Shown: one piece after another, positions 956 to 31,750 of the stretch | Layout: each line of letters begins with the position of its first letter | Position numbering within the stretch: position 1 is the stretch's first letter | Assembly: GCA_021825385.1 (NCBI GenBank) | Contig: JAKAHU010000005.1 | Span: forward strand, 1 to 32,257 | Origin: Chloroflexota bacterium | Lineage (GTDB): Bacteria; Chloroflexota; Limnocylindria; Limnocylindrales; CSP1-4 | Direction: 5' to 3' | DNA: 32,257 bases | Made by a program: the position numbers and the translations under genes | Notes under the pieces: generated by a model | Told to the model about the DNA's origin: nothing | The model's input: only the letters and a program-made list of their open reading frames with translations | The model's database searches: none

Positions 956-958
956 GCG

Positions 959-2320: not shown

Positions 2321-3129
2321 GGCGACCCGTGATGCGCTCCCTGCCGCGCGCAACCGAGCAGATCGCCTTCCCGCTCGCGTTTCTCGCGCTGCTGGTTGCG
2401 ATCCTCGTGGCCGGAGGGTTCGTGGCCACGGTCGCGCTGCCGGACATGCTCCGCACGGGCGCGGCCACCGCACCGGGCACGGGCGGGGGCGGCGCCCGTC
2501 CCAGCGGCTCGCCGCAACCGAGCTCTGCCATGGCGCTCTCGGCGATCGGCATCGCGATGCCGGCCAACGCCGACTGCCTGGCCTGCCACACGGTTTCGAC
2601 GGGCGGGGTCGGCACGAAGCCGATCCCGTACCTCGGCCATCCGCTCCAGGGGTTCACCAACTGCACCGCCTGCCACAACCCGACCGGCCTGGTGAAGACG
2701 GCTCCCGGGCACTCCAGCCTCCACGCGAGCCAGTGCCTGATCTGCCATCAGGAGAACCCCAACCTGACCTCCATGAGCCAGGTGCCGGCCCGACCGGAGC
2801 ACATGACCGGCGAGGCGTGCACCGACTGCCACAATCCGTCCAAGCACGCGCCGCTGCCGTCGGACATGGCCAACCGCGGCGACAACTGCTGGATCTGCCA
2901 CAACGGGCCCGAGTTCCAGTACCTGTTCGCCTCTCCGTCGCCGTCGGCGGGCGCCGGGTCCGCCGTCCCCACGCCGGCGCCGGCCGCGTCGGGCTCGGTC
3001 GCGCCGTCGGGCTCGCCCGCTCCGGCCGCGACCTCCGCGACCTCCGCGACCTCCGGGGCGATCGCGCCGGCGGGCCTGCCCGCCCCGGTCACCGGGTACC
3101 TCCTCGTGCCGGCGCGCGCCACCCCCTGA
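2317..3129 (+). CDS. Membrane-anchored multiheme (five CxxCH) c-type cytochrome
   Basis: CLACH, CTACH, CLICH, CTDCH, CWICH motifs; N-terminal hydrophobic anchor; Pro/Ala/Ser-rich C-terminal tail. Confidence 0.88.
   Translation: MRRPVMRSLPRATEQIAFPLAFLALLVAILVAGGFVATVALPDMLRTGAATAPGTGGGGARPSGSPQPSSAMALSAIGIAMPANADCLACHTVSTGGVGTKPIPYLGHPLQGFTNCTACHNPTGLVKTAPGHSSLHASQCLICHQENPNLTSMSQVPARPEHMTGEACTDCHNPSKHAPLPSDMANRGDNCWICHNGPEFQYLFASPSPSAGAGSAVPTPAPAASGSVAPSGSPAPAATSATSATSGAIAPAGLPAPVTGYLLVPARATP
3031..3057 (+). repeat. 9-bp tandem repeat (acctccgcg, two exact copies plus one with one or two changes) encoding TSA repeats in the cytochrome tail
   Basis: acctccgcg acctccgcg acctccggg read directly. 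Confidence 0.8.
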
Positions 3130-5642: not shown

Positions 5643-5741
5643 CAGACCACTCTACCCTGCCCCACCTGCCCCCGGCAGGCGCCCGGGAGAGGACCGGCCG
5701 TATCCTCCGAGGCAGCATTCCAATGCCCCAGAGAGGCGCCC

Positions 5742-6554
5742 GTGGACTTCGACTACCGCCTGCCCAACTCCGACGCGCCCCAGATCCTGGTCCGGCGGAC
5801 CGCGATCGGTGGCGTCCGGGTGGTCGCGGACGGCGAGCGGGTGCCGGGCCGCGGCGGAGTGTACGAGATCGCGGGCTCGGACGGGCAGGCGCACCTGCTG
5901 CGCGTGACCGGGGCGTGGACCGGGCTGCGGGCGATTGCCGACGGCTGGGACGTCCCGCTGGAGGCCCCGGTGCCCCTCTGGTCGCGTGCCCTGATCGTCC
6001 TGCCGCTGGCGCTCGTCATCGGCGGCCTGGTCGGGGTCGCGCTGGGTGCGGTCGCCACGGCGCTGAACGCGATCGTCGCGCGCACGCCCCTGCGGGTCCC
6101 GGTCCGGGCGCTGGTCATGATCGCCGTGCTGGTGGCCGCCGGCGTGGCATGGGCGGCGGTGGGGTCGGCGCTCACGACGATGGGCAGCGCCAGCGTGTCG
6201 TACGCGGTGGGCACGTGCCTGTCGGGCCTCACCCCCGGCACGGACCTGGTGGCCAAGACGCCGACGCCCGTCGCGTGCGACGCCCCGCACGACGCCGAGG
6301 TGGTCGGGACGTACGCGGCCGCCGACGCCGCCACCTACCCGGGCGAGACCGCGCTGGCGAGCACGGCGGGCCAGCGGTGCCCGCCCCTGTTCAGGGCCTA
6401 CGTCGGCAGCGACTTCGCCTCGTCGCAGCTGGACATCCTGCCGGTGATCCCCACGCAGGTGGCCTGGGACGCCGGCACGCGCGACGTGGCCTGCGTGGCC
6501 GTCACGATGGACGGGTCCAAGCTGACCTCGTCGGTGAGGAACAGCCACCGCTAG
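5742..6554 (+). CDS. Membrane protein with a septum-formation-like extracytoplasmic domain
   Basis: GTG start; two TM segments then a Cys-containing domain with VGTCL...VACDAPHDAEVVGTY pattern typical of actinobacterial/chloroflexal septum-formation-related proteins. Confidence 0.6.
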   Translation: MDFDYRLPNSDAPQILVRRTAIGGVRVVADGERVPGRGGVYEIAGSDGQAHLLRVTGAWTGLRAIADGWDVPLEAPVPLWSRALIVLPLALVIGGLVGVALGAVATALNAIVARTPLRVPVRALVMIAVLVAAGVAWAAVGSALTTMGSASVSYAVGTCLSGLTPGTDLVAKTPTPVACDAPHDAEVVGTYAAADAATYPGETALASTAGQRCPPLFRAYVGSDFASSQLDILPVIPTQVAWDAGTRDVACVAVTMDGSKLTSSVRNSHR

Positions 6555-6555
6555 C

Positions 6556-6589
6556 GGCGCCGGGCGGCCGGCGAGGTCTGGCCGGCGCC
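6556..6589. terminator. Probable bidirectional terminator hairpin between convergent genes
   Basis: Perfect 8-bp stem GGCGCCGG (6556-6563) / CCGGCGCC (6582-6589), lying between stop codons ending at 6554 and 6590; no clear T tract. Confidence 0.5.
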
Positions 6590-7573
6590 CTACCAGCGCT
6601 GGTGGACCAGCGGGCGAACCCTGGCGTCATAGAGCTCCGCCACCCGCGCCATCGTCTCCGGCGGCAGCGGCGCCAGGCCCGCGGCGGCGGCGTTCGCGAT
6701 GGCCTGCTCCGGCGACTTGGCGCCCGGGATCGCCGCGGTCACACCCTCGTGCATGAGGATCCAGCGCAGCGCGACCTGGGCCAGCGTGACGCCGTCCGGG
6801 ACCAGCTCGCGCAGCGCCTCGACCACCTCCAGGCCGGTCGTGTAGTCCACGCCGGCGAACGTCTCGCCCACGTCGAACACGGCGCCCTGCCGGTTGTAGG
6901 CACGATGGTCTGTCGCCTCGAAGACGGTGTCGGGCCGGAGCCTGCCGGTGAGCAGGCCGGACGCGAGGGGCACCCGGGTGAGCACGCCCACGTCGCGGCG
7001 GGCGGCCTCGCCCAGGAACCGCTCGGCGGGCCGCTGGCGGAGCATGTTGAAGATGATCTGGACCGTGGCCACGCCCGGGAACTCCAGCGCCTTGAGGCCC
7101 TCCTCCACCTTCTCCACGCTCAAGCCGTAGTTGCGGATCCGCCCCTCCGCCGCCATCTCGTCGAGGGCGGCGAAGACCTCAGGCGTGTAGTAGACCTGCG
7201 TCGGCGGGCAGTGCAGCTGGACCAGGTCCAGCGTGTCCACGCCCAGGTTCTCGCGGCTGCGGTCGTTCCAGGCCCGGAACGCGTCCGGGTTGTAGCTCTC
7301 GGGCAGCTGCGGAACGCGGCGGCCCATCTTGGTGGCCACGAAGAACGTCTCGCCCGGTCGCTCGCGCAAGAACCGGCCGATCAGCCGCTCGCTCCGCCCG
7401 TCGCCGTAGACATCGGCCGTGTCGATCAGGTCAACGCCGGCGTCGGCGGCCGCGTGGAGCGCCCGGAGCGCGGTCGCGTCCTCCACCGCCCCCCAGTCGC
7501 CGCCGATGGCCCACGCCCCGAAGCCCACGACCGAGACGGCACGGCCGGTCTTGCCAAGCCTGCGGTGCTCCAT
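6590..7573 (-). CDS. Aldo/keto reductase
   Basis: MEHRRLGKTGRAVSVVGFGAWAIGGDWG..., DLIDTADVYGDGRSE, LDLVQLHCPP. Confidence 0.92.
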   Translation of the reverse strand: MEHRRLGKTGRAVSVVGFGAWAIGGDWGAVEDATALRALHAAADAGVDLIDTADVYGDGRSERLIGRFLRERPGETFFVATKMGRRVPQLPESYNPDAFRAWNDRSRENLGVDTLDLVQLHCPPTQVYYTPEVFAALDEMAAEGRIRNYGLSVEKVEEGLKALEFPGVATVQIIFNMLRQRPAERFLGEAARRDVGVLTRVPLASGLLTGRLRPDTVFEATDHRAYNRQGAVFDVGETFAGVDYTTGLEVVEALRELVPDGVTLAQVALRWILMHEGVTAAIPGAKSPEQAIANAAAAGLAPLPPETMARVAELYDARVRPLVHQRW

Positions 7574-7727
7574 GGCGCGCTCCCTCCTGGTTGCGGTCCC
7601 GTGGCGGGCCTGCGAGCCGAGTGTACCGAGCGGGGCGCGACGGCCGGGGGCGCCGGCCGGGAGGACCTGCACCCGCAGCCAGCGGCCCGCGAGCGCTTGC
7701 CGGCTCGCACTCCGCGACACAGGGCAC

Positions 7728-7760
7728 GTTGTGACAACTGGCCCTACTCACAAGGCCAGT
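7728..7760. promoter_or_regulatory. Overlapping palindromes in divergent intergenic region (putative operator)
   Basis: GTTGTGACAAC (7728-7738) perfect; ACTGGCC (7737-7743) / GGCCAGT (7754-7760) inverted repeat. Confidence 0.35.
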
Positions 7761-7825
7761 CGGCATACCACCATCTCGCCTTCCGTTGCCGCGACCGACT
7801 GGCGGCACGTTCAGGAGCGAGCCCA

Positions 7826-8953
7826 GTGGCCGATCTGTCCACGCGCTTCACGGGGATTCCCTTCGTCAACCCATTCCTGCTTGCCTCGGCGCCCCCGACG
7901 GAATCCGAGAGCAACATCGAGCGGGCCTTTGAGGCCGGCTGGGGTGGCGTCGTCACCAAGACGATCGGCCTGCACCCCGTGGTGAACGTCGCCGGGCCCC
8001 GGACCAAGTTCCTCCGGACCGATCCGGCCACCGGGCGGACGTCGATGGCCAAGCGCCCCGAAGCCGCGCTGATGGCGTCGTGGAACTGGGAGCTGATCAG
8101 CGACAAGTCGCTCGACTGGTGGATGCCGCGCATCGAGCGGCTCAAGCGCAACTGGCCGGACCGCGTGCTGGTGGCCTCAATCATGGCCGGCTCCGGGGAT
8201 GACAAGGAGTTCGAGCACTGGCAGACGCTGGCGCGTGGCGTCCAGGAGGCTGGCGCCGACGCGATCGAGCTCAACTTCAGCTGCCCGCACATGGACCGGG
8301 TTGACATGGGCTCCAACGTGGGCAAGGACCCGGTCCTGTGCTCCACCTCCACCATGGCCGTGCGGCAGGTGGCGAAGGTCCCGGTCTGGGTCAAGCTCAC
8401 CCCGGCCACGGCGAACATCGCCGAGGAGGCGGAGGCCACCTTCCTCGGCGGCGCGAGCGCGATCGTGTCGTCCAACACGTTCCCGGCCCTGCCGCTGGTG
8501 GACCCCGACTCGCTCGAGTTCGAGATCAACGTTGACGGCTACGTCTCCGCCGGCGGCCTGGGCGGGCCTGCCATCCTGCCGCTGTCGCTGGCCAAGATGG
8601 CCGAGATGACGAAAGCCTTCCCGGACCGCGAGTTCTCCGGCATCGGGGGCATCTCCGGCTGGGCGCAGGCGCTGGACTACTTCCTGCTCGGCTGCGGGAC
8701 CGTCCAGGTGGCCACGGCCGCGATGCTCGACCACGCGATCGGGCCCAACGTGATCCGGGACCTGACCGAGGGCATGGCCGCCTTCCTCGATCGGCACGCC
8801 GACCGGGGCTGGACCAGCCTCGACGACTTCCGCGGCCTGCGCCGCGACCGGATCGTGGCCCAGGGCGACATCCGGCGCCCGAGCGGCAGCGACTACCACG
8901 GCGGGCACGAGGAGGAGGCCGAGGGCTACGCCCCCGTGCCCGCGTCCGCCTAG
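7826..8953 (+). CDS. PreA-like dihydropyrimidine dehydrogenase / dihydroorotate dehydrogenase family, lacking C-terminal ferredoxin domain
   Basis: GTG start; GIPFVNPFLLASAPPTES, GWGGVVTKTIG, IELNFSCPHM, MGSNVGKDP, WVKLTPATANI, SGIGGISGWAQALDYFLLG. Confidence 0.85.
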   Translation: MADLSTRFTGIPFVNPFLLASAPPTESESNIERAFEAGWGGVVTKTIGLHPVVNVAGPRTKFLRTDPATGRTSMAKRPEAALMASWNWELISDKSLDWWMPRIERLKRNWPDRVLVASIMAGSGDDKEFEHWQTLARGVQEAGADAIELNFSCPHMDRVDMGSNVGKDPVLCSTSTMAVRQVAKVPVWVKLTPATANIAEEAEATFLGGASAIVSSNTFPALPLVDPDSLEFEINVDGYVSAGGLGGPAILPLSLAKMAEMTKAFPDREFSGIGGISGWAQALDYFLLGCGTVQVATAAMLDHAIGPNVIRDLTEGMAAFLDRHADRGWTSLDDFRGLRRDRIVAQGDIRRPSGSDYHGGHEEEAEGYAPVPASA

Positions 8954-14598: not shown

Positions 14599-14635
14599 GC
14601 TGAGGCACCCCGCCCCGCGGTGCCGCCGGCTCAGC
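14599..14635. terminator. Bipartite hairpin between convergent DMT transporter and operon end
   Basis: GCTGAG (14599-14604) / CTCAGC (14630-14635) outer stem and GGCACC (14604-14609) / GGTGCC (14619-14624) inner stem, overlapping by one base; overlaps the stop of the 14631 gene. Confidence 0.4.
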
Positions 14636-15878
14636 GGCTCACGCCGTACGTCTTTGCGGTCTCGATCATCGCGGCGAGGTTTTCGGGCTTCGCCTCGTCG
14701 AGCATCACCGACGTGTCCACGATGTAGCCGCCGTCGCGCCCGAGCAGGTCGATCAGCCGACGCGTCGTGGCCGCCACCTCGTCCGGCGTGGCGGCGAGGA
14801 GCTGGATGTTGGGCACGCTGCCCATCAGGCAGACCCTGCCCGCCAGCGCGCCGCGCGCCGCCTCGGGGCGCGTGCCCGCGAGGTGGTAGATCATCGTCCC
14901 GGAGGGCACGTCCGCAATGGCCTCGAGGCGGCTCTCGAAGTCCGCCTCCCAGTACACGAGCGGGATGATGCCGAGTCCCACCAGAGCGAGCAGGCCCTCG
15001 CGCAGGTACGGCCAGTAGAACTCCCGGAACTGGGCGTCGGACATGAACTCCCGGGTGGCCTTGTGGATCCAGATCCAAACGATGGGCAGCTCGGCCGAGG
15101 CTGCCGGGGCCGCGTACTCGACGAAGATCCGAGTCGCCACCTTGAGCGCGTCGTGGAGCTTGGCGGGCCGGCGGCGCATGTCGGCGAGGATGTTGGCGGT
15201 GCCGCGCAGCGTGTCGCCGAGGATGTCGAACGGCGCCCAGTCGAAGCCCGCGTACGCGAGCGGGTAGCCCTTGGCGCGCGCCTCCTCCGTGTACTGGCCA
15301 ATCGACGCGAACCAGTCGTTGACCTCCTCGCCGGCCTGGATCGCGGCCTCGAGCGAGCGGCGGGCCTCCGGGGCGGCCAGCGCGCCGAGGCTCATCCAGC
15401 CGCTCCACATGAAGCGCCTCCAGGGCGCGGGCCGCCCGAATCCCTCCAGGGCGGCGAACTGGCGTGGCGCCCAGGTGCGGAACATGAAGTCGGACGGGTC
15501 GGCGATGAAGTCGTCGTACTCGGCCGCTGTCATGTACTCGCCCTCGACGTACTGGTACATCGCGTCGTCGGGCAGGCCGTGGCCGGGCCAGCGGAACGCT
15601 CGGTAGCCCAGCGTCTCCATGGGCTTGGCGGGGTAAGCGAGGATCGGACCGAAGTCGAGGTCCGGGGCGAACCGATCGGCGAAGGCGTGGCACGCCCGCC
15701 GAGCGGCGGCGTAGTCGGTCATCGCCTCGCGCATCGTCAGGCCGCCGTAGGTGTAGACGTACTTCTGGTACGGCCCGAACACGGGGACGCGGTCCGGGGT
15801 CCGCTGCGCCACCGCGTCGCGCACGCGCTGCTGGCGGGCGGCGTAGGCGGCCGCGGGGTCGTCGTTGAACTCGCGCAT
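14631..15878 (-). CDS. Uroporphyrinogen decarboxylase (UROD/MtaA-like) family corrinoid methyltransferase
   Basis: TPDRVPVFGPYQKY..., GRVCLMGSVPNIQLLAATPDEVAATTRRLIDLLGRDGGYIVDTSVMLDEAKPENLAAMIETAKTYG; directly downstream of corrinoid protein gene. Confidence 0.85.
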   Translation of the reverse strand: MREFNDDPAAAYAARQQRVRDAVAQRTPDRVPVFGPYQKYVYTYGGLTMREAMTDYAAARRACHAFADRFAPDLDFGPILAYPAKPMETLGYRAFRWPGHGLPDDAMYQYVEGEYMTAAEYDDFIADPSDFMFRTWAPRQFAALEGFGRPAPWRRFMWSGWMSLGALAAPEARRSLEAAIQAGEEVNDWFASIGQYTEEARAKGYPLAYAGFDWAPFDILGDTLRGTANILADMRRRPAKLHDALKVATRIFVEYAAPAASAELPIVWIWIHKATREFMSDAQFREFYWPYLREGLLALVGLGIIPLVYWEADFESRLEAIADVPSGTMIYHLAGTRPEAARGALAGRVCLMGSVPNIQLLAATPDEVAATTRRLIDLLGRDGGYIVDTSVMLDEAKPENLAAMIETAKTYGVSR

Positions 15879-15895
15879 CTGCCGTGCCTCCGTGC

Positions 15896-16522
15896 TCAGG
15901 CGACCCAAGCCGAGGCGAGCCGGACGGCCGCCTGCGCGTTCGCGCCGTACGCGTCGGCACCGACGTAGGCCCGGACGTCCTCGTCCATGATCGCGCCCCC
16001 AATCATCACCTTGACCGTGCTGCGGAGGCCGGCCTCGGCCAGCGCCTCGACCGTCAGGCGCATCTGGTCGAACGCGATCGTGAGAAACCCCGACAGGCCC
16101 ACAACCGCGGGTCGCGCCTCGCGGACCCGCTCCACGAACACCTCCGCCGGCACGTCCACGCCAAGGTCCACCACCTCGAAGTTGTTCACCTCGAGCATGA
16201 ACGTGACGATGTCCTTGCCGATATCGTGGATGTCGCCGGCGACCGTGCCGATCACGACCCGCCCGCGGGGCGCCACCGGGGCCGCCTCGGCGAGCCGCGG
16301 CTTCACCAGCGCGGCGATCCCCTTCATCACGTCGCCCGCGATGATGAGCTCGGGCAGGAAGTACTCGCCCGCCTCGTAGCGTGCCCCGACGATCCCGAGT
16401 GCGTCCTTGGCGGCATCGAGGACCGCGGCAGGCTCGGCGCCGGCCTCGAGCCAGGCGACGGCCAGACGCGCGGCCTCGTCCTCCTCCATGTCGGCGATGG
16501 CGTGGATGAGCTCGTCTCTCAT
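15896..16522 (-). CDS. Corrinoid (B12-binding) methyltransferase cognate protein (MtbC/MtaC-like)
   Basis: Helical cap domain then GDIHDIGKDIV (DxHxxG cobalamin motif) and VKVMIGGAIMDEDVRAYVGADAYGANAQAAVRLA. Confidence 0.93.
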   Translation of the reverse strand: MRDELIHAIADMEEDEAARLAVAWLEAGAEPAAVLDAAKDALGIVGARYEAGEYFLPELIIAGDVMKGIAALVKPRLAEAAPVAPRGRVVIGTVAGDIHDIGKDIVTFMLEVNNFEVVDLGVDVPAEVFVERVREARPAVVGLSGFLTIAFDQMRLTVEALAEAGLRSTVKVMIGGAIMDEDVRAYVGADAYGANAQAAVRLASAWVA

Positions 16523-16544: not shown

Positions 16545-17642
16545 TCAGCGGGCGATGCGGGCGCTCGCGCCCCGGATGACCGCCTCGACCTCGGCTCGTG
16601 CGGCCATCGACGCGTCGCCCGGCGTGGTCATCGCGAGCGCGCCGTGGGCGGCTCCGTACTCCACCGCCTCGGCTGGGCCGCGCCCGTCGAGGAGCCCGAA
16701 GATGAGGCCCGAGGCGAACGAATCGCCGCCGCCGACGCGGTCGAGGACCTCGAGGTCGGGCCGGCGCGTGGCCTCGTGCAGCACGCCGTCGGCCCAGCAG
16801 ACGGCCCCCCAGTCGTTCCGGGTGGCCGTCCGGGCGACGCGGAGCGTGGTGGCCACGACCCCGAGGTTGGGGTACGCGGCGACCACGTCCCCGATCATCC
16901 GGCCGAAGCCCGCCGGGTCCAGCGCCGTGAGGTCAGCGTCCGAGCCGGGCACGTCGAACCCGAGCGCCGCGGTGAAGTCCTCCTCGTTGCCAAGCAGCAC
17001 GTCCACCAAGGCCACGAGGTCGCGATTGACGTCGCGGGCGCGTTCGCGACCGCCGATCCCGGCCCACAGCGACGGTCGGTAATTGAGGTCGTACGAGACG
17101 ACCACGCCGTGGCGGCGGGCGGCCTCCATCGCCTCGCGCGCCACTGCGGCGGTCGTCTCAGACAGCGCCGCGAAGATGCCGCCCGTGTGGAGCCAGCGAG
17201 CGCCATCGCCGCCGAACAGCGCGTCCCAGTCCACCTCGCCAGGCCGCATCTGCGATGCCGCCGTGTGACCCCGATCGGACACGCCCAGCGCGGCGCGAAC
17301 GCCGAATCCGCGCTCCGTGAAGTTCAGCCCGTTGCGCACCGACCTGCCGATGCCGTCGTACTGGACCCAGCGGACGCGGCTCGCGTCCACGCCACCCTGG
17401 CGGATGAGATCCTCGATCAGGCGCCCGACGGGATTGTCGGCCAGCGCGCTCACGAGCGCCGTCCGCAGCCCGAAGCACCGGGTCAGGCCGCGGGCGACGT
17501 TGTACTCGCCGCCGCCCTCCCAGGCGCTGAACTCGCGCGTCGTCGAGATGCGCCCCTCGCCGGGGTCCAGGCGGAGCATCACCTCGCCCAGGGCCACAAG
17601 GTCCCAGCGCGACCCTGCCGCCGGCCGGATGTCAAGCGGCAC
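16545..17642 (-). CDS. PfkB-family sugar kinase, 2-keto-3-deoxygluconate kinase-like
   Basis: GTG start; WDLVALGEVMLRLDPGEGRI, YDLNYRPSLW, DRVGGGDSFASGLIFGLL. Confidence 0.85.
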   Translation of the reverse strand: MPLDIRPAAGSRWDLVALGEVMLRLDPGEGRISTTREFSAWEGGGEYNVARGLTRCFGLRTALVSALADNPVGRLIEDLIRQGGVDASRVRWVQYDGIGRSVRNGLNFTERGFGVRAALGVSDRGHTAASQMRPGEVDWDALFGGDGARWLHTGGIFAALSETTAAVAREAMEAARRHGVVVSYDLNYRPSLWAGIGGRERARDVNRDLVALVDVLLGNEEDFTAALGFDVPGSDADLTALDPAGFGRMIGDVVAAYPNLGVVATTLRVARTATRNDWGAVCWADGVLHEATRRPDLEVLDRVGGGDSFASGLIFGLLDGRGPAEAVEYGAAHGALAMTTPGDASMAARAEVEAVIRGASARIAR

Positions 17643-17644
17643 CG

Positions 17645-18055
17645 CTACACCTTGCGATCCGAGTCGCCCGACTCGTCGAACGCCCGGTGCATCATGCCCA
17701 GCGACGGGTCCGGACCCTTGAAGCCGACCAGATACTCGAGCCGAATGGGCGCGAACGCCTCGTAGAACACAACGTCCTCGTCGCCCAGCTGACGGAAGGC
17801 GTGGATCCAGTTGGAGGGGATGACCAGGAGCGAGCCCGGCCCCACCTCCCTCTCCTCGCCCGCCACCCTGGCCCACAGGCGTCCCGACGCGACCAGCATG
17901 ATCTGCTCGGCTTCGTGGCTGTGCTCCGGGACCACCACGCCGCCGCGGTAGACGATGCGGGTCAGCATCACCTTCTCGCCGGAGACGGCCTGGCGGTGGA
18001 CGCCCTTGACGTACTCGACCGTCGGGAACTCGTCCCAGGTGGTGATCTGGCTCAT
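17645..18055 (-). CDS. Cupin-domain protein, KdgF-like
   Basis: VVVPEHSHEAEQIMLVASGRLWARVAGEEREVGPGSLLVIPSNWIHAF cupin motifs; ATGA overlap with upstream ORF. Confidence 0.8.
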   Translation of the reverse strand: MSQITTWDEFPTVEYVKGVHRQAVSGEKVMLTRIVYRGGVVVPEHSHEAEQIMLVASGRLWARVAGEEREVGPGSLLVIPSNWIHAFRQLGDEDVVFYEAFAPIRLEYLVGFKGPDPSLGMMHRAFDESGDSDRKV

Positions 18056-19071
18056 GCGGCTCCCTCCCCGGCGGCGGCCCGGGCATCGAGCCCGCGCAGG
18101 ATCGCCTCCGGCGTGACCGGCAGGGTGTCCACCCTCACCCCGCACGCGTGGTAGATGGCGTTGACGATGGCCGGGATCGGCGCGTTGGCAGTCATCTCGC
18201 CGACGCCCTTGACGCCGTACGGCCCGTTGGCCGAAGGGACCTCGAGCACCACCGATTCGATGAGCGGCAGCTCCGGCATGCCCGGCATCAGGTACCCGGC
18301 GAAGTCCTTGGGGCTGTGGTCGCGGCTCGGGTAGTACGGCTCCGTGGTCTCGTAGAGCGCGTGGCTCATGCCCATCCATGCACCGCCCGTGATCTGGCCC
18401 TTCACCAGCGCTGGGTTGACCTGCCGGCCCACCTCGTAGGCGCTTCGGATGCTCAGCACCGCCACCTCGCCCGTCTCGGTGTCCACCTCCACCTCGGCCA
18501 CCGTGCAGGCGTAGGCCTGGGTGGAGTCGGGGTCCATGGCCCCGGTCTCCGGGTCCACGCCGCTCTTGGGTTTCATGTACGCGCCGCGTCCGGAGATCGT
18601 GCGGCCGTACTGGAACTGGGCTCGTGACGCGAGGTCCGCGATGTCGCGCCGCTTCTGGGGCGAGCCGGACACATAGACGCCGCCCCGCCCGTCGAGGACG
18701 AGGTCGTCAGCCGACACCTCGAGCTCCTCGGACGCGAGCTGGAGCACGGCGTCGCGCGCCTCGATGGCCGCCGCTTTTACCGCGTTGCCCACCCGGTGCG
18801 TGGCGCGGCTGGCGAAGGTGCCCATATCGTGCGGCCCGGTGTCGGTGTCGGCGGTCTGGATGACGATCTGGTCATAGGGGACGCCGAGCGTCTCCGCGGC
18901 GATCTGGGCCATCACGGTGCGCAGCCCCTGTCCCAAGTCCGCGGCAGCGAGCACCACGTTGAACGAGCCGCTCGTGGTGGCGTGGATCAGCGCCTGGGAC
19001 GGGTCACCGCCTAGGTTCATCCCAGTCGGGTAGTTGACCGCGGCCATGCCGGTCCCACGCAGCTTCGCCAT
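18052..19071 (-). CDS. Molybdenum hydroxylase, molybdopterin-binding subunit C-terminal part (NdhM-type 'medium' subunit)
   Basis: AADLGQGLRTVMAQIAAETLGVPYD, VNPALVKGQITGGAWMGMSHAL, YGVKGVGEMTANAPIPAIVNAI (catalytic Glu region). Confidence 0.88.
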   Translation of the reverse strand: MAKLRGTGMAAVNYPTGMNLGGDPSQALIHATTSGSFNVVLAAADLGQGLRTVMAQIAAETLGVPYDQIVIQTADTDTGPHDMGTFASRATHRVGNAVKAAAIEARDAVLQLASEELEVSADDLVLDGRGGVYVSGSPQKRRDIADLASRAQFQYGRTISGRGAYMKPKSGVDPETGAMDPDSTQAYACTVAEVEVDTETGEVAVLSIRSAYEVGRQVNPALVKGQITGGAWMGMSHALYETTEPYYPSRDHSPKDFAGYLMPGMPELPLIESVVLEVPSANGPYGVKGVGEMTANAPIPAIVNAIYHACGVRVDTLPVTPEAILRGLDARAAAGEGAA

Positions 19072-19072
19072 G

Positions 19073-20419
19073 TCAGCGGCCCCCTTCCTGCTCGGCGCGC
19101 GGGGCCGAGGACATCGCCATGAGGTCGGGCGGCAGCTCGCGCCCGACAAGCCCGGCGGCCGCCTGCATCGTCTCGATGAGGGTGCAGTCCGCGACGGCCT
19201 TGCGGTGCGGCTTGACGTCGCCGTTGTGGTGGGCATTCCGGAAGCGAACTGTCCAGGGGTCCAGGCCGCAGACCTCGGCGATCTTGTCCATCTGGACCTC
19301 GACCGCGAACGAGCCCATCGTGACGCCGAACCCGCGCATCGCCGAGGTGGGGGTCCGGTTGGTGTAGACGCAGTAGGCATCGATCGACACGTTCGGGATG
19401 CGGTAGGGCCCGGCGGCGTTCGCCGCGTGCTTGGTCAGCGCGTAGGGCGTCTGGCGGCTGTAGGCGCCGCAGTCGGCGAGGCTCGTCACCTGGCGTGCGA
19501 CGACGGTGCCGTCGGCCAGCACCCCGTCCTTGATCCGGATCGTCCACGGGCTGCGCGTGGAGCTGACCTGCATCTCCTCCTGACGGGTGAACACGTAGCG
19601 CACGGGCCGACCGGTCCTCATCGCGCCGAGGGTCGCGAGCGGCTCGACGATGACGTCCACCTTGCCGCCGAACCCACCGCCGACGGTGCCGCCCACGAAG
19701 CGCAGCCGGTTCGGCTGCACCTGCAGGATGATCGAGGTGTTGTCCAGGCTGAAGTACAGCGCCTGCGTGTTGGTGTAGACCGTGTACCGGCCGTTGGGCT
19801 CGGGGACCGCGATGGCACCGGTGGTCTCGAGGGGCGCCTGCTCGATCGGCGAGGTGCGGTACTCGCCCTCCACGATGTGGTCCGCCTGCGCGAAGCCGGC
19901 CTCGACGTCGCCGAAGCGGACGCGCCGGCAGTTGTGGCCCTCGAACATGAACGTGTTGTTGCCCCAGTGGGTCACCACCGGGGCGTCGGGCCGCAGCGCC
20001 TCGTCCATGTCGAACACGGCGGGCAGTTCCTCGAGGTCCATGCCGACCCGGGCGACCGCCTCGTTGGCTGCGGCCTCGGTCTCGGCGAGGATGGCCACGA
20101 TCGGCTCGCCGACGTAGCGGACCCGGTCCTCGGCGAGCACGAACTCCTCCTCGGGCTCCACGCCGATGAGCCCCAGGATCGTGTAGACGTTGTGCGGCAC
20201 GTCGGCGTGGGTGAGGGCGCGGACGAAGCCCGGCACGCGCTCCGCCTCGGACAGGTCCACCCCCCGCACGCGTGCGTGGGGCAGCGGGCTGCGGACCACC
20301 TTGAGGTGCAGCATGCCCGGGAAGGTCAGGTCCGCCGTGTACTTCGTCTGGCCGGAGACGTGTCCGGCGCCGTCGTATCGCTGGAGCGATTCGCCGACGA
20401 CATTGAGGCCGGCGCTCAT
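19073..20419 (-). CDS. Molybdenum hydroxylase, molybdopterin-binding subunit N-terminal part (NdhL-type 'large' subunit)
   Basis: DGAGHVSGQTKYTADLTFPGMLHLKVVRSPLPHARV, GGTVGGGFGGKVDV, PTSAMRGFGVTMGSFAVE; stop at 19073-19075. Confidence 0.9.
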   Translation of the reverse strand: MSAGLNVVGESLQRYDGAGHVSGQTKYTADLTFPGMLHLKVVRSPLPHARVRGVDLSEAERVPGFVRALTHADVPHNVYTILGLIGVEPEEEFVLAEDRVRYVGEPIVAILAETEAAANEAVARVGMDLEELPAVFDMDEALRPDAPVVTHWGNNTFMFEGHNCRRVRFGDVEAGFAQADHIVEGEYRTSPIEQAPLETTGAIAVPEPNGRYTVYTNTQALYFSLDNTSIILQVQPNRLRFVGGTVGGGFGGKVDVIVEPLATLGAMRTGRPVRYVFTRQEEMQVSSTRSPWTIRIKDGVLADGTVVARQVTSLADCGAYSRQTPYALTKHAANAAGPYRIPNVSIDAYCVYTNRTPTSAMRGFGVTMGSFAVEVQMDKIAEVCGLDPWTVRFRNAHHNGDVKPHRKAVADCTLIETMQAAAGLVGRELPPDLMAMSSAPRAEQEGGR

Positions 20420-20910
20420 CGGGTGGCCTCCTCGCGGGACACGACGGCTGCAGCCTCGACGGCTGCGAGGATCGGCGCGTAGCCCGTGCACCGGCAGACG
20501 TTGCCCGACAGCGCGTCCATGACCTCCTCGCGGGTGGGCGACGGGTTCCGCTCGAGCAACGCCTCGGTGACCATCTCCATGCCCGGCGTGCAGTAGCCGC
20601 ACTGGGTGCCGTTGGCGTCGAGGAACGCCCGCTGAACGGGCGTTAGCCCCTCGGCGGGCGTGAGGTCCTCAAGGGTGGTCACGCTCCGGCCGGCCACGTC
20701 CTGGACCGGGAGCAGACAGGACGGGACGGGCTCGCCGTCCAGCAGCACCGTGCACGAGCCGCAGCCGCCCTGTCGGCAGCCGTCCTTCACCGACGTGCGG
20801 CCGAGCTGCGTGCGGAGGACCTGCTGGAGGGTCGTCAGCGGGCGAACCAGCACCTCCACGGGCCGGCCCCCAAGCTCGAATTCGACGACGACTGACGCCA
20901 CGCTACGCAC
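20416..20910 (-). CDS. 2Fe-2S subunit of molybdenum hydroxylase (CoxS/NdhS-like)
   Basis: CRQGGCGSCTVLLDGEPVPSCL and GTQCGYCTPGMEM...GNVCRCTGYAPI; start may be GTG at 20901. Confidence 0.95.
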   Translation of the reverse strand: MRSVASVVVEFELGGRPVEVLVRPLTTLQQVLRTQLGRTSVKDGCRQGGCGSCTVLLDGEPVPSCLLPVQDVAGRSVTTLEDLTPAEGLTPVQRAFLDANGTQCGYCTPGMEMVTEALLERNPSPTREEVMDALSGNVCRCTGYAPILAAVEAAAVVSREEATR

Positions 20911-21751
20911 CCCTCTCCTCGGGCTGCGCGAGCTGCGCCAAGGCCCGTTCCACCATCACGCCCACCATCCGCCGCCGATACCAGGCCGACGCGACCGGAT
21001 CCGAGAAGGGCTCGGCGTCCTCCATCGCCGCGGCGACCGCCTCGGCGATGGCCGCGTGGGTCAGCGGGCGGCCGAGCAGGGCCGCCTCGGCACCAGCCGA
21101 TCGCAGCGGGTGCGGACCGACGGCTCCGAGCGCCACGCGCGCGTCGGCGACCACATCGCCCTCCATGGCGACCCGCGCGGCGACGGTCACCACCGCCGGC
21201 GTGTTCGCCGCCTTGCGGCCGAACTTGAGGAACGCCTGGCGGTCGGCAGTGACCGGAACCGCCAGCCGCACCGCGAGCTCGTCCGGGGCGAGTGCGGTGG
21301 TCATGAAGCCCGTCCAGAACCCGCCGAGCGGCAGCACGCGGACACCGGACGGGCCGATCGCCTCGACCTGCGTGTCGAGCGCGAGCAGCGCCGTGGCCAC
21401 GCCCCCCCCCGGCGGCGGGGTGAACAGGTTGCCGCCGACCGTGCCCACGTTGCGCACCTGCCAGCTGGCCGTGTGGCGCGCGGCCTCAGCCAGGAGCGGC
21501 AGGTGCGGCTGGGCGGCCAGCGCCGTGAGCGTTGCCGTAGCGCCGATCATGAGGCGGTCGCCCACCAGCTCCACGCGGTCGATCCCGAGCCGGCGCAGGC
21601 CCATCACCCTGGCCGGCAGCGAGATGCCCTCGTTGATCAGCGGCATCGCGACCGTCCCACCGGCGATCACCAGGAGCTCGGGACCGTGCTCCGTGAGGAG
21701 GGCCAGGGCCTCTGGCACCGACGCGGGCTGGAAGTAGCTCGAGACCGTCAC
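20903..21751 (-). CDS. FAD-binding subunit of molybdenum hydroxylase (CoxM/NdhF-like)
   Basis: VIAGGTVAMPLINEG, VRNVGTVGGNLFTPPPGGGVATALLALD; GTG start overlapping upstream stop. Confidence 0.92.
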   Translation of the reverse strand: MTVSSYFQPASVPEALALLTEHGPELLVIAGGTVAMPLINEGISLPARVMGLRRLGIDRVELVGDRLMIGATATLTALAAQPHLPLLAEAARHTASWQVRNVGTVGGNLFTPPPGGGVATALLALDTQVEAIGPSGVRVLPLGGFWTGFMTTALAPDELAVRLAVPVTADRQAFLKFGRKAANTPAVVTVAARVAMEGDVVADARVALGAVGPHPLRSAGAEAALLGRPLTHAAIAEAVAAAMEDAEPFSDPVASAWYRRRMVGVMVERALAQLAQPEERGA

Positions 21752-22197
21752 TCGTGGACCTCCATGGCAAGGCGACGGTCCAGGGCGGCGAGACCCTGGC
21801 CGATCAGCGATTGGGCGAGGCGTTCTGCGATGCCGCCGTCGAGGCGGGCGAGCGGGCCGCCGACCACGCCCGACCCGCTGTAGGTCATGGCGGTCCCGGC
21901 GTCGGCGTCCGCGAGCTCGAACCGGGCCCGGCCCGCGATCGTGCCCATGGCGCCCTCGACGCGACCGTCGAGGTCGCATCGCTCGGGCTCGAGGATGTCG
22001 ACGAGGCGGACGTGCGTGCGGTAGGTGCCCGCAGCGCCCGGAAGGCGGAGGGCGATCCGGCCCGCGTACTCGTCGGGGCCAACCTGCTGGACGGCCTCGC
22101 AACCGGGGATCACAGCGAGCAGCACGCGCGGGTCGCGGATGGCGGCGAACACCGCGCCGCGCGGTGCGGCGAAGTGGTGGCGGCCCTGGATGTTCAT
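21748..22197 (-). CDS. CoxG/SRPBCC-like carbon monoxide dehydrogenase subunit G family protein
   Basis: MNIQGRHHFAAPRGAVFAAIRDPRVLLAVIPGCEAVQQVGPDEYAGRI...GSGVVGGPLARLDGGIAERLAQSLIGQGLAAL. Confidence 0.88.
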   Translation of the reverse strand: MNIQGRHHFAAPRGAVFAAIRDPRVLLAVIPGCEAVQQVGPDEYAGRIALRLPGAAGTYRTHVRLVDILEPERCDLDGRVEGAMGTIAGRARFELADADAGTAMTYSGSGVVGGPLARLDGGIAERLAQSLIGQGLAALDRRLAMEVHE

Positions 22198-22961
22198 CGC
22201 CGCACGGCCGACGCCACGGCGCTCGCCAGCGCCGCCTCCACGTGGGTCAGGTGCGCCTCCATGGCGGCGGCTGCCGCAGCGGGGTCATGCGCGCGCAGCG
22301 CGGTCAGGATCGTCTCGTGGTCCTTGAGGGCGCCCCGGCGAGTCGCGGCGGCAGCGCCCGTCCGCTCTCGGCTCACCCTGCCCAGCGTGTTGATGATGCG
22401 CATGAACTGGACGAGCAGGAAGTTGCCGGCCGCCTCGCAGACGGCGTCGTGAAACGCGATATCGAGCTCCGCGAAGCGGTCGGCGTCGTCCACGGCGGCC
22501 TGCAGCCGCTGCAGCAGCGCATCCAGGTCGCTCAGCTCGTCGGGCGTGATCCGCTGAGCCGCTAGGCGGACGTTGCCCACCTCCACGATGCGCCGGGTCT
22601 CGATGACCTGCGACAGCGCGACGGGGTCCTTCGAGAACACGAAGTCGAGGTGCGAGATGAGCTGCTGCGGCTCGAGGGCGGTGATGTAGGTGCCGGCACC
22701 CTGGCGGATCTCGACGACGTTCATGATCGCGAGCGCGCGAAGCGCCTCGCGCAGGACCGGCCGACTGACGCTCATCTCCGCGGCCAGCTCCCGCTCGGCG
22801 GGCAGCTTGTCGCCGGGCCGGAGCTGCTCGGCCCGGATGAGGTCGAGCAGGCGCGACGCGATCTCCTCGGGCAGGGTGCTGCGGTCCACCAGCGCGAAAC
22901 GCGGCCACGCCGGTGGCGTCTCGGCACCGCCGCCGGCGGCGGGTTCGGGATCGGTTGCCAC
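22194..22961 (-). CDS. GntR/FadR-family (FCD) transcriptional regulator
   Basis: LPEEIASRLLDLIRAEQLRPGDKLPAERELAAEMSVSRPVLREALRAL wHTH; alpha-helical FCD-type C-terminal domain. Confidence 0.95.
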   Translation of the reverse strand: MATDPEPAAGGGAETPPAWPRFALVDRSTLPEEIASRLLDLIRAEQLRPGDKLPAERELAAEMSVSRPVLREALRALAIMNVVEIRQGAGTYITALEPQQLISHLDFVFSKDPVALSQVIETRRIVEVGNVRLAAQRITPDELSDLDALLQRLQAAVDDADRFAELDIAFHDAVCEAAGNFLLVQFMRIINTLGRVSRERTGAAAATRRGALKDHETILTALRAHDPAAAAAAMEAHLTHVEAALASAVASAVRR

Positions 22962-25097: not shown

Positions 25098-26222
25098 TCA
25101 GCTCGCGTCCACCCAGGCTTCCCCTCGGAGCACGCGGCGAACCCGCAGGTCATCGTCCAACTCCACGAGGTGCGCGAGGCGCCCGACCTCGATCCGCCCG
25201 CGATCGTGCGCATCGAGCAGCGCGGCGGGGTTGGACGACGCGGCCTGCACGGCGCGCACCAGCGGCAGCCCTTCGCGGACGAGGTTGCGGACCGCCGTGT
25301 CCAGCGCGATCGTGGAGCCCGCGAGCGTGTCCGTGCCCACCAGCGTCGCGCGGCCGCCGCGCACGTCCACCTCGAGGCCACCCACGCGTGTGCGCCCGTC
25401 GCCCATGCCGGCGAGCGGCAGCGCGTCACTGATCAGCACCAGGCGGTCCGCCGGCTTGGTGCGCGTGATGATCGGCCACAGCGCCGGGTGAACGTGGAAG
25501 CCGTCGGCGATTAGCTCTGCGTAGGCGTCGTCGTCCACGAGCGCCGCCACCGCGAGGCCGGGGTTGCGGTGGTCGATGCCGGACATCGCGTTGAACAGGT
25601 GCGTGGTCGTGACGCGCCGCCCAGCCGCCGCGTAGCCCGCCTGCGCCTCCGCGAGCGTCGCCTGCGAGTGGCCGAGCGAGGTCACGATCCCGCGCTCGGC
25701 GAGCCGCGCGATGAGTGCCGGCGATCCCGGCAGCTCAGGCGCGATCGTCATGATCCGCAGGCCGTCGAGCACGCGCTCGATCACGGCCGGGTCGAGGTCG
25801 GCCGGGGTGCGGAGGAGCGCCGGGTCGTGCGCGCCCTTGCGCGCAGGCGCGATGAACGGCCCCTCGAGGTTGAACCCGAGCGGCACGGCGCCGTCGGCCG
25901 GGGCAATGGGCATCCAGGCCCGGACCCGCTCAGCGAAGCGGGGCAGCTCGTCGGCTGACAGCGTCGGAGCGGTGGGCAGGAACGACGTGACGCCCCGACG
26001 GAGCAGCGCCCGCGCCATGCCTGACAGGGCGTCCGTGTCGCCGGTGGCGTCGTGGCCGCCCCAGCCGTGGCAGTGGACGTCGATGAAGCCGGGCGCGACA
26101 TAGGGCCCGGCGGCGGCCGACTCGTCGGGCTCGACCGAGGCGATCTTGCCGCCCTCCACGACGACGCGGCCCGGCACCACCGCGTCGGCGAGCACGAGAC
26201 GACCAACGACGACCTCAGGCAT
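25098..26222 (-). CDS. nagA: N-acetylglucosamine-6-phosphate deacetylase
   Basis: APGFIDVHCHGWGGHDATGD, FNLEGPFIAPARKGAHDP, SLGHSQATLAEA, TTHLFNAMSGIDHRNPG. Confidence 0.92.
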   Translation of the reverse strand: MPEVVVGRLVLADAVVPGRVVVEGGKIASVEPDESAAAGPYVAPGFIDVHCHGWGGHDATGDTDALSGMARALLRRGVTSFLPTAPTLSADELPRFAERVRAWMPIAPADGAVPLGFNLEGPFIAPARKGAHDPALLRTPADLDPAVIERVLDGLRIMTIAPELPGSPALIARLAERGIVTSLGHSQATLAEAQAGYAAAGRRVTTTHLFNAMSGIDHRNPGLAVAALVDDDAYAELIADGFHVHPALWPIITRTKPADRLVLISDALPLAGMGDGRTRVGGLEVDVRGGRATLVGTDTLAGSTIALDTAVRNLVREGLPLVRAVQAASSNPAALLDAHDRGRIEVGRLAHLVELDDDLRVRRVLRGEAWVDAS

Positions 26223-26487
26223 GGACGGGCTCCCACTCGCGCACGGCCTCGTGCATTGCGAGGATGTTCTCGGCTGGCAGGTCCGGCTGGATATCGCGGA
26301 CCGGGGCGAGCTGCTGGGCGCGGTCCTCCGCACCGGGCTCGCGCGGCTCAAGGCCAGGTGCGGGCCGAACCGCCGGCAGGAGTTGACGTGCATCCCGGTC
26401 AGGCGCGTGCCGCCCAGCTCGATCGGCAGGCGGTGGGGTTCGCGACGGGCGACGAGCGGCGCGGATGCGCTCGCGGCCGGCGGGCAT
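26215..26487 (-). pseudogene. Degenerate UROD/MtaA-like methyltransferase gene (frameshifts plus large internal deletion)
   Basis: N-terminal UROD signature split over frames ([11 protein letters not shown] / LVARREPHRLPIELGGTRLTGMHVNSCRRFGPHLAL) and C-terminal signature VRDIQPDLPAENILAMHEAVREWEPVHA* in a 90-aa ORF; start overlaps upstream stop (TGATG), stop overlaps nagA start (ATGCCTGA). Confidence 0.7.
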
Positions 26488-27251
26488 CAGACCTCCCGGG
26501 TCGTGTCGGGCTCGACGTCGAACCGGACGTCGAGCGCATAGCGGTCGGCGGAGTAGCGGCTCTCGGTGGCCTCGACTCGCCGCCCATGGGCATCGGCGAT
26601 CACCCGCCGCTCGACCAGCAAGGGGTCGCCGCGCCGGAGCTCCAGCAGGCGGGCGTCCTCGGCGGTGGCGGCCGCGGCGCCGATGGTCGCGGCGCCGCGA
26701 CGCAGGTGCCAGCCGCCCTGCGCCAGGGCTTCGTGGAGCGAGCCCTGCTCCACCTCGGCGGCCAGCACGATCTTGGCCACGGCAGCGATCAGCACGGCGG
26801 TCTCGAGCGCGATCGGCTCCCCATCGGCGCAGCGCAGCCGACGCACGACCACCACGGGCTCCGAGACGCGGATCCCGAGCGACTCCGCCTCCGCCCGCAC
26901 GGACGGGCGGATCTCGCGCGCCAGCAGGCGCGACGAGGGCGTGCGCCCACGGCGGCGCATCTCGTGGCTGAAGGTGAGAAGGCGGTCCGCCCGGCGGTGG
27001 GACGGCGGCTCCGCGACGTAACTGCCGCGGCCCGAGACGCGCACGATCAGGCCGTCAGCGGCAAGCCTCGCCATCGCATTCCGGGCGGTCATGCGGCTGA
27101 CGCCGAACTCGCGGCACAGCTCGGCGTCCGACGGAAGCGGGTCGCCGGGGGCCAGCATGCCGATCCGGATCCGCAGGGCCAGCTCAATGCGACGCCAGTG
27201 CGGAACGGCGGGACCCGGCGCGGGGGCGAGGCTGTCGAATGCGTCCGTCAC
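26487..27251 (-). CDS. GntR/HutC-family (UTRA) transcriptional regulator
   Basis: [59 protein letters not shown] wHTH followed by UTRA-like domain. Confidence 0.93.
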
Positions 27252-29564: not shown

Positions 29565-29658
29565 CCCCAACCGCGTGCCACCACGCGGCCATCGTCAATC
29601 ACGGGCGTCCCCAATGGGAGTTCGGCCCGGCTCTCCGGCCGGGCGAAAGGGAGGCCGT

Positions 29659-30879
29659 ATGTCGGCGAAGACCATCCTGCTGATCGGCACGCTGGACACC
29701 AAGGGTCGGGAGTACGCCTACGTGCGCGACCTGATCCGGGCGCGCGGCCACCGGGTGTTCATGCTCGATGCCGGCGTCCTGGGCGAGCCGGTGTTCGAGC
29801 CCGACAGCCCCTCTTCAAGAACCGCGGAGGCAGGTGGAGGCACCCTGGCCGAGCTGCGCGAGCGGCGCGACCGGGGGCATGCGCTGGAGATCATGGGCCT
29901 CGGGGCCAGGTCGCTGGCCCTGGACCTGCTGGCGGCGGGCAAGTTCGACGCCGTGTTCGCGATGGGCGGGTCCGGCGGGACCTCGATCGGCGCCACCGCG
30001 ATGCAGGCGCTCCCGGTCGGCATGCCCAAGCTGATCGTCTCGACGATGGCGTCGGGCAACGTGGCCCCCTACGTCGACGTGAAGGACATCACGATGATGT
30101 ACTCCGTCGTGGACGTGGCGGGCCTCAACCGCGTCTCGCGCCGGGTGCTCGCCAACGCAGCCGGCGCGATCTGCGGGATGGCCGAGCAGGAGGCCGGCGA
30201 CGCGGAGCAGAAGCCGCTCGTGGCCGCCACGATGTTCGGGGTCACGACGCCGTGCGTGGACCGCGTCCGCGAGCGGATCGAATCGGCCGGCTACGAGATG
30301 CTGGTCTTCCACGCGACCGGCAGCGGCGGTCGCGCGATGGAGTCGCTGATCTCCGACGGGTTCGTGGCGGGCGTCGCTGACGTCACCACCACCGAGTGGT
30401 GCGACGAGCTGGTGGGCGGGGTCCTGTCCGCCGGGCCGACCCGCCTCGACGCCGCGGCCAGGGCGGGCATCCCGCAGGTCGTCTCGCTGGGCGCGCTGGA
30501 CATGGTCAACTTCGGCCCCATGGACACGGTGCCAGAGCAGTTCCGCGACCGGAACCTGTACGTCCACAACCCGCAGGTCACGCTGATGCGGACGACGCGC
30601 GAGGAGAACCGCCGCCTGGGCGAGATCATCGCGGGCAAGCTCAACGCGGCCACGGGGCCCACGGCGCTGTTCATCCCGCTCGGCGGCGTGAGCATGATCG
30701 ACGCCGAGGGGATGCCGTTCCACGACCCGGTGGCCGACGCCGCCCTGTTCGACGCCCTCCGCGCCAACCTCGACCGGTCCCGGGTGGACCTCGTCGAGAT
30801 CGACGCCAACGTCAACGACCCGGCCTTCGCCGACGCCATGGCCGATCGGCTGCTGGCCGAGCTCGCCGCCAAGGCCTGA
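29659..30879 (+). CDS. Tm-1-like ATP-binding domain protein (UPF0261)
   Basis: [86 protein letters not shown]. Confidence 0.92.
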
Positions 30880-30907
30880 CCGCGCTGCACCATCGAGGAG
30901 TCGCACC

Positions 30908-31750
30908 ATGCCCTTCATTCCGCGCGCCGAACTGGAGCACCGCCTGCGGGCGAACATCGAGGCCGGCATCCCGATCGTGGGCGCCGGGGCCGGCACCGGC
31001 ATCAGCGCCAAGATGGCCGAGGCCGGCGGCGCCGACATGGCGATCATCTACAACAGCGGCCGCTACCGGATGGCCGGGCGAGGCTCGCTGGCCGGCCTCC
31101 TCGCCTACGGCGACGCCAACGGGATCGTGGTCGAGATGGCGGCCGAGGTCCTCCCGGTCGTGAGCCGGATGGCCGTGCTGGCGGGCATCAACGGCACCGA
31201 CCCGTTCCGGATCATGAGGGTCTTCCTGCGCCAGCTGCGCGAGCTCGGCTTCGACGGCGTCCAGAACTTCCCGACCGTGGGCCTGATCGACGGGGACTTC
31301 CGCAAGAACCTCGAGGCCACCGGCATGGGCTACGACAAGGAGGTCGCGGCCATCGCCGAGGCCCACGCCCAAGACATGTTCTGCTCGCCCTACGTCTTCG
31401 ACCCCGACCAGGCCAGGGCCATGGTGGGGGCGGGCGCCGACCAGCTGGTCGCCCACGTCGGCCTGACGACCGCCGGCACGATCGGCGCGGGCGTGGCGTT
31501 CACGCTCGACCAGGCGATCGACAAGGTCATGGCGATGGCCGAGGCGGGCCGGAGCGTCCGCAAGGACGTCATCATCCTGTGCCACGGGGGACCGTTCGAC
31601 GAGCCGGCCAACGTGGGCGAGGCGCTTCGGCGCATGCCCGGCGTGCACGGCTTCTTCGGCGCCTCGTCGGTGGAGCGGCTGCCCACCGAGCGGGCGATCA
31701 AAGCCCAGGTGGCGGAGTTCAAGCAGCTGGCGGTGGCCGGGCCCGCCTGA
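30908..31750 (+). CDS. Phosphoenolpyruvate hydrolase-like TIM-barrel protein (Tm-1 C-terminal domain homologue)
   Basis: [80 protein letters not shown]. Confidence 0.92.

What the first reader, a model, noticed from the sequence alone, without database searches (positions are those of the whole stretch)
18052..20910. Molybdopterin subunit is split into two ORFs in F-S-L-M order, like anaerobic nicotinate dehydrogenase
Seen: one ORF of about 448 aa carries GGGFGGK and AMRGFG. A second of about 339 aa carries the DLGQG and GVKGVGE segments. The FAD (about 282 aa) and 2Fe-2S (about 164 aa) genes precede them. Together the halves keep all the active-site segments of a normal single large subunit. 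Established: Eubacterium barkeri nicotinate dehydrogenase is a rare case with separate large and medium molybdopterin subunits plus FAD and Fe-S subunits, and its large-subunit Mo site has labile selenium. Inference: this is a relative with the same split but in a sugar-acid/corrinoid context, so the substrate may be new.
Basis: partly seen in the sequence, partly recalled or inferred. Interest (0 to 1): 0.75.

Follow-up and report, generated by a model that had tools for sequence, protein, structure and literature searches.

The report
Two-piece molybdenum hydroxylase, widespread uncharacterised family
A Chloroflexota genome encodes a molybdenum-dependent oxidising enzyme whose usual single large protein is made as two separate, closely linked halves; this is a real and widespread arrangement found in dozens of bacteria and an archaeon, and its context points to an unknown, perhaps sugar-like, substrate rather than nicotinate.

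Summary
On the minus strand lie F (FAD), S (2Fe-2S), L (448 aa) and M (339 aa). L ends with a TGA one base before the ATG of M, and the active-site segments are divided between them as described. It is not an indel: the same genome holds a second split copy (77-80% identical), and 86 loci from Chloroflexota, Alphaproteobacteria, Actinomycetota, Thermomicrobiota and a haloarchaeon show separate L and M, nearly all 14-base overlaps to 4-base gaps, in all frames, with all three stop codons. One relative has them fused. The closest solved structure for both halves is E. barkeri nicotinate dehydrogenase (3hrd). But AU tests reject one clade of all split forms (p about 1e-4) and window clade + NdhLM alone (p 0.002). 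No selD above cut-off and no yqeB were found, so selenium is unsupported. The corrinoid genes are local to this window. Conserved neighbours are GntR/CoxG/cupin in close relatives, and MoxR, CoxE-type VWA and a lactonase-like amidohydrolase in others; NagA, KDG kinase, KDPG aldolase and sugar kinases recur in some. I infer a sulfo-type Mo enzyme, possibly oxidising a sugar or aldehyde; substrate unproven. Real, but a new clade of a known kind.

The parts
20903..21748 (-). F: FAD-binding subunit (FAD_binding_5 + CO_deh_flav_C)
20416..20910 (-). S: 2Fe-2S subunit (Fer2 + Fer2_2), GTG start
19073..20419 (-). L: large molybdopterin subunit (Ald_Xan_dh_C + MoCoBD_1), carries Q219, GGGFGGK, AMRGFG
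18052..19071 (-). M: medium molybdopterin subunit (MoCoBD_2), carries DLGQG and GVKGVGE (catalytic Glu); starts 1 base after the L stop
17645..18055 (-). small cupin protein overlapping the M stop by a few bases (start inferred); conserved next to M in most close Chloroflexota relatives
16545..17645 (-). PfkB sugar kinase, nearest to 2-keto-3-deoxygluconate kinase (2afb); called beside FSLM in 6 of 34 Chloroflexota loci (start approximate)
21748..22197 (-). CoxG-like (SRPBCC) protein, conserved directly upstream of F
22194..22961 (-). GntR/FCD transcription regulator, conserved upstream
25098..26393 (-). NagA-like amidohydrolase (GlcNAc-6-phosphate deacetylase model above cut-off), also near the second copy and three other relatives
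26487..27251 (-). GntR-UTRA regulator next to NagA; homologue at the second FSLM copy
15896..16522 (-). corrinoid (B12-binding) protein: in this window only, not part of the conserved neighbourhood
14631..15908 (-). UroD/MtaA-like corrinoid methyltransferase: in this window only, not part of the conserved neighbourhood

Best explanation
This is a genuine operon for a four-subunit (F-S-L-M) molybdenum hydroxylase of the xanthine oxidase family. The molybdenum-binding chain is encoded as two proteins, cut at the linker between its two molybdenum-binding domains; the halves are presumably made in equal amounts by translational coupling (M starts at the L stop) and reassemble with the cofactor at their interface, as in the solved E. 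barkeri enzyme. The split is inherited throughout a large, discrete and apparently uncharacterised clade. The catalytic residues are invariant, so it should hydroxylate or oxidise a C-H bond with water as oxygen donor and pass electrons Mo -> 2Fe-2S -> FAD. Shown: gene structure, conservation, phylogeny, context. Inferred: complex formation, coupling, sulfur rather than selenium on Mo. Weakly inferred: the substrate is a sugar or aldehyde (aldose to lactone or acid) rather than nicotinate.
For: Gene structure and domains; best solved relatives 3hrd_A/3hrd_B. Second split FSLM copy in the same genome, 77-80% identical. 86 split loci, gap -14 to +4 bases in all but one (a broken L gene), three stop types, all frames. 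A natural fusion in L038 suggests that the halves act as one unit. Q219, GGGFGGK, RGF, DLGQG and the GVGE glutamate essentially invariant in 87 rows. No selD above cut-off, no yqeB; XdhC and CoxE maturation genes present in the genome and MoxR/CoxE next to FSLM in many non-Chloroflexota members. Sugar hints: KDG-kinase-like PfkB, NagA, ROK kinase, KDPG aldolase, FGGY kinase and isomerase-like proteins, sugar ABC transporters, fuconolactonase-like Amidohydro_2.
Against: No biochemical data found for any clade member. The sugar-linked genes occur in only some loci and differ between lineages; Amidohydro_2, cyclase, FAA hydrolase and isochorismatase neighbours also occur in aromatic or N-heterocycle breakdown. 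The fuconolactonase score (78 bits) is far below its cut-off (400). The genome is only 88% complete, so missing selenium genes are not proof. Assembly of L with M was not modelled.
Confidence: 0.78

Rival explanations
1. It is a true nicotinate (or other pyridine) dehydrogenase, an orthologue of E. barkeri NdhFSLM, possibly selenium-dependent.
For: Best solved-structure hit for both halves; same gene order and break point; NdhL Gln208, NdhM Tyr13 and Glu289 positions conserved.
Against: Fused proteins group with NdhLM apart from the window clade; a clade of window family + NdhLM is rejected (p-AU 0.0017); long stem of 1.15-1.22 changes per site; residues around NdhM Tyr13 and NdhL 184-199 differ consistently; no selD above cut-off, no yqeB; no recognised nicotinate-pathway gene among the neighbours scanned.
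Confidence: 0.06
2. It oxidises an N-heterocycle or other aromatic (for example a pyrimidine, hydantoin or pyrone) rather than a sugar.
For: Most characterised molybdenum hydroxylases act on such rings (established knowledge). A PreA-like protein and an NCS1 nucleobase permease lie in the window; amidohydrolase, cyclase, isochorismatase and FAA hydrolase genes flank some members.
Against: The PreA and NCS1 genes lie 7-12 kb away on the other strand, and no homologue was found near FSLM elsewhere; sugar kinases, NagA and KDPG aldolase recur closer to it in the window's own subclade.
Confidence: 0.35
3. The split is a sequencing or assembly indel in an ordinary fused gene.
For: The genome is in 371 contigs and L and M are in different frames one base apart.
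Against: 86 split loci from several phyla, in three frames with three stop codons and a start codon at M (79 ATG, 7 GTG), plus a second copy in the same genome.
Confidence: 0.01

Closest known systems
Eubacterium barkeri nicotinate dehydrogenase NdhFSLM (PDB 3hrd)
   Same: Four subunits in order F-S-L-M, large Mo chain broken at the same inter-domain linker, same active-site residues
   Different: Not sister on the tree (fused forms intervene); no evidence for selenium or nicotinate; different context; about 1.2 changes per site on the stem
Selenium-dependent / XdhA-type xanthine dehydrogenases and MOP-type aldehyde oxidoreductase (fused large chain)
   Same: Same catalytic domains, motifs and cofactor chain
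   Different: One Mo chain (sometimes also fused to the Fe-S domain); all equivalog scores far below cut-off
Aerobic CO dehydrogenase (CoxMSL with CoxD, CoxE, CoxG)
   Same: Many members carry MoxR (CoxD-like), VWA CoxE and CoxG-like genes
   Different: CoxL is one chain; the active-site loop here is AMRGFG, not the AYRCSF type; the genome has separate fused xanthine-oxidase-family enzymes on contig C152, beside XdhC and CoxE genes
Sulfolobus-type glyceraldehyde dehydrogenase (NCBIfam glyceraldDH)
   Same: F subunit scores best here among NCBIfam models (170.7 bits)
   Different: Below cut-off (350); alpha subunit is fused

Membership tests
Xanthine oxidase family (molybdenum hydroxylases) | Ald_Xan_dh_C, MoCoBD_1 and MoCoBD_2 domains with FAD and two 2Fe-2S modules | tested here: met
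   Pfam above cut-offs for all four genes
Xanthine oxidase family (molybdenum hydroxylases) | Catalytic Glu in GVGE, active-site Gln, Moco-binding motifs | tested here: met
   Invariant or nearly so in 87 rows
Nicotinate dehydrogenase NdhFSLM | Separate L and M genes in order F-S-L-M | tested here: met
Nicotinate dehydrogenase NdhFSLM | Groups with NdhLM to the exclusion of fused forms | tested here: not met
   AU p 0.0017 for window clade + NdhLM; p 3e-5 and 9e-5 for all split forms
Nicotinate dehydrogenase NdhFSLM | Nicotinate as substrate | not testable with these tools
   No recognised nicotinate-pathway neighbour among the genes scanned
Nicotinate dehydrogenase NdhFSLM | Labile selenium on Mo (selD, yqeB maturation genes) | tested here: inconclusive
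   No selD above cut-off and no yqeB in an 88% complete genome
Aerobic CO dehydrogenase | AYRCSF active-site loop and CoxL-type large chain | tested here: not met
   Loop is AMRGFG; NCBIfam CoxL scores far below cut-off

The most novel reading that the evidence does not exclude
A distinct, very widespread clade of split molybdenum hydroxylases that is neither nicotinate dehydrogenase nor any named enzyme, and that oxidises aldoses or amino sugars to lactones or acids feeding a KDG/KDPG route, with fission and re-fusion of the Mo chain as a recurrent evolutionary switch.
Probability: 0.3. Interest if true: 0.55.

Novelty: new member of a known kind. Interest (0 to 1): 0.38.

Why it matters
The split Mo chain is best known from a single anaerobic enzyme. 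Here it defines a large clade across at least four bacterial phyla and a haloarchaeon, with cultured members such as Mesorhizobium, Phytohabitans, Nonomuraea and Solirubrobacter in which the substrate could be found. It also shows that 'split like NdhLM' does not mean 'nicotinate dehydrogenase', which matters for annotation by gene order.

Tried and rejected
Indel artefact: rejected by relatives. Common origin with NdhLM as one clade: rejected, although one ancient fission with later re-fusions is not excluded; the tree needs at least four split/fused changes. Corrinoid link: not conserved. Selenium: no marker genes found. Oxidative chitin pathway (GlcNAc acid to KDG): considered because of NagA + KDG kinase; not adopted, since the known deacetylase OngB is described as linked to amino acid deacetylases (PMC12017989, title) and NagA-like proteins normally act on the 6-phosphate. 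Literature searches for split Mo chains or a Mo sugar dehydrogenase with a lactonase gave nothing useful in the open library. Two apparent further splits (L105, L106) look like frameshifted or truncated genes and were left out of the trees. No structure prediction was run: only single chains are offered and the L-M complex is the question.

Full report
Observation. The minus strand of the window encodes F (about 21748-20903), S (20910-20416), L (20419-19073, 448 aa) and M (19071-18052, 339 aa). The L stop TGA is followed by one C and then the ATG of M. A purine-rich, ribosome-binding-site-like stretch (AGGAAGGGGG) lies just upstream of that ATG, inside the L gene, which suggests translational coupling (inference).

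Is the split real? Yes. Searching the window's own genome showed a second split set on contig C205: L 77% and M 80% identical, with S, F, CoxG, GntR and cupin neighbours in the same order. A scan of a collection of 84,980 species genomes returned 80 close relatives (64-92% identity in M) from Chloroflexota, Alphaproteobacteria, Actinomycetota and Thermomicrobiota, and plasmid records added five more, including the haloarchaeon Salinigranum. Of the loci with both genes, 86 have L and M as separate frames. The gap between the L stop and the inferred M start is -14 to +4 bases in all but one; stop codons are TGA, TAG and TAA; M lies in any of the three frames relative to L. (One of these loci, L108, is very probably the same contig as L021.) The exception, L099, has a broken L gene. 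One member, L038 (Caldilineales), has L and M fused in a single 822-aa frame with a longer linker, which supports the view that the halves work as one unit. Within a sample of 151 genomes of the phylum there is a sharp gap between this family (79% or more) and everything else (43% or less), most of which is fused.

What it is. The best solved relatives of both halves are the large and medium molybdopterin subunits of E. barkeri nicotinate dehydrogenase (3hrd; 243 and 192 bits, against 183 and 152 for the next). The active-site loop AFRGFG at NdhL 349-354, numbered as in PMC8305194, aligns with AMRGFG here. The Gln at NdhL 208, GGGFGGK, DLGQG and the GVGE glutamate (NdhM 289) are essentially invariant in 87 clade rows. 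M carries a clade signature, NYPTGMNLGGDP, near its start.

Phylogeny. In an IQ-TREE of 60 concatenated or fused Mo chains the window's family is one fully supported clade (with the L038 fusion inside it) on a stem of about 1.2 changes per site. NdhLM groups with a fused protein from another Chloroflexota genome (L111), and both sit among other fused and split forms. Holding all split forms together is rejected (p-AU 3e-5; 9e-5 without long branches), and so is holding the window clade with NdhLM (p-AU 0.0017). The tree needs at least four changes between split and fused. One ancient fission with several re-fusions and several independent fissions are both compatible, so I do not claim convergence. 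The break lies at the same inter-domain linker in each case.

Context. In close Chloroflexota relatives the order is GntR-CoxG-F-S-L-M-cupin (GntR and CoxG called in 18 each, cupin in 13, of 34 Chloroflexota loci); in the Anaerolineae and Caldilineae subgroup a cyclase (PF04199) is typical instead of the cupin. In Alphaproteobacteria, Actinomycetota and Thermomicrobiota a divergent GntR/FCD regulator precedes F-S-L-M, followed by MoxR ATPase, CoxE-type VWA protein and an Amidohydro_2 protein (43, 22 and 42 of 53 non-Chloroflexota loci), whose only NCBIfam relative is L-fucono-1,5-lactonase, below cut-off. These counts come from a simple homology-based ORF caller and are lower bounds. MoxR/CoxE proteins serve Mo-site sulfuration and maturation in CO dehydrogenase (established knowledge), which together with the lack of selD and yqeB makes sulfur more likely than selenium. 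Near the window copy and its nearest kin lie a KDG-kinase-like PfkB, NagA, a GntR-UTRA regulator, a ROK kinase and KDPG aldolase; elsewhere FGGY kinases, xylose-isomerase-like proteins and sugar ABC transporters. This is the basis for a sugar-type substrate; it is suggestive only.

Verdict. The finding is real and the comparison to NdhLM is apt as architecture, but the arrangement is ordinary within a large, apparently uncharacterised clade, is not specially related to nicotinate dehydrogenase, and has no support for selenium. New member of a known kind, with a substrate worth finding.

Noticed in passing
L038 5540-8008: Natural fusion of L and M into one 822-aa open frame in a Caldilineales genome inside the otherwise split clade.
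   Followed up: partly
L099 13622-14998: L gene broken into two frames in a Sinorhizobium sp. BG8 plasmid; M intact.
   Followed up: no
L100 13139-14986 and L101 13362-14999: L proteins with long Pro/Ala-rich C-terminal extensions just before M, in Yoonia and Shinella plasmids.
   Followed up: no
window 14631-16522: Corrinoid protein plus UroD/MtaA-like methyltransferase between the PfkB gene and an EamA (DMT-type) transporter; absent from the nearest relative L017 at the same place, so a local insertion or loss.
   Followed up: partly
window 5723-8953: 1076-aa protein whose C-terminal third resembles PreA dihydropyrimidine dehydrogenase while the first 700 residues match no Pfam family; followed by an NCS1 nucleobase permease.
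   Followed up: no
window 29575-31750: UPF0261 (Tm-1-like) and PEP-hydrolase-like genes side by side; UPF0261 homologues also lie near FSLM in L028, L042 and L049.
   Followed up: no
window 182-3129: 4Fe-4S ferredoxin, NrfD-like membrane protein and cytochrome c7-like protein in a row: a probable membrane electron-transfer module.
   Followed up: no
L102 and L103: Two further split Mo chains in other Chloroflexota families, outside the window's clade and nearer to NdhLM.
   Followed up: partly
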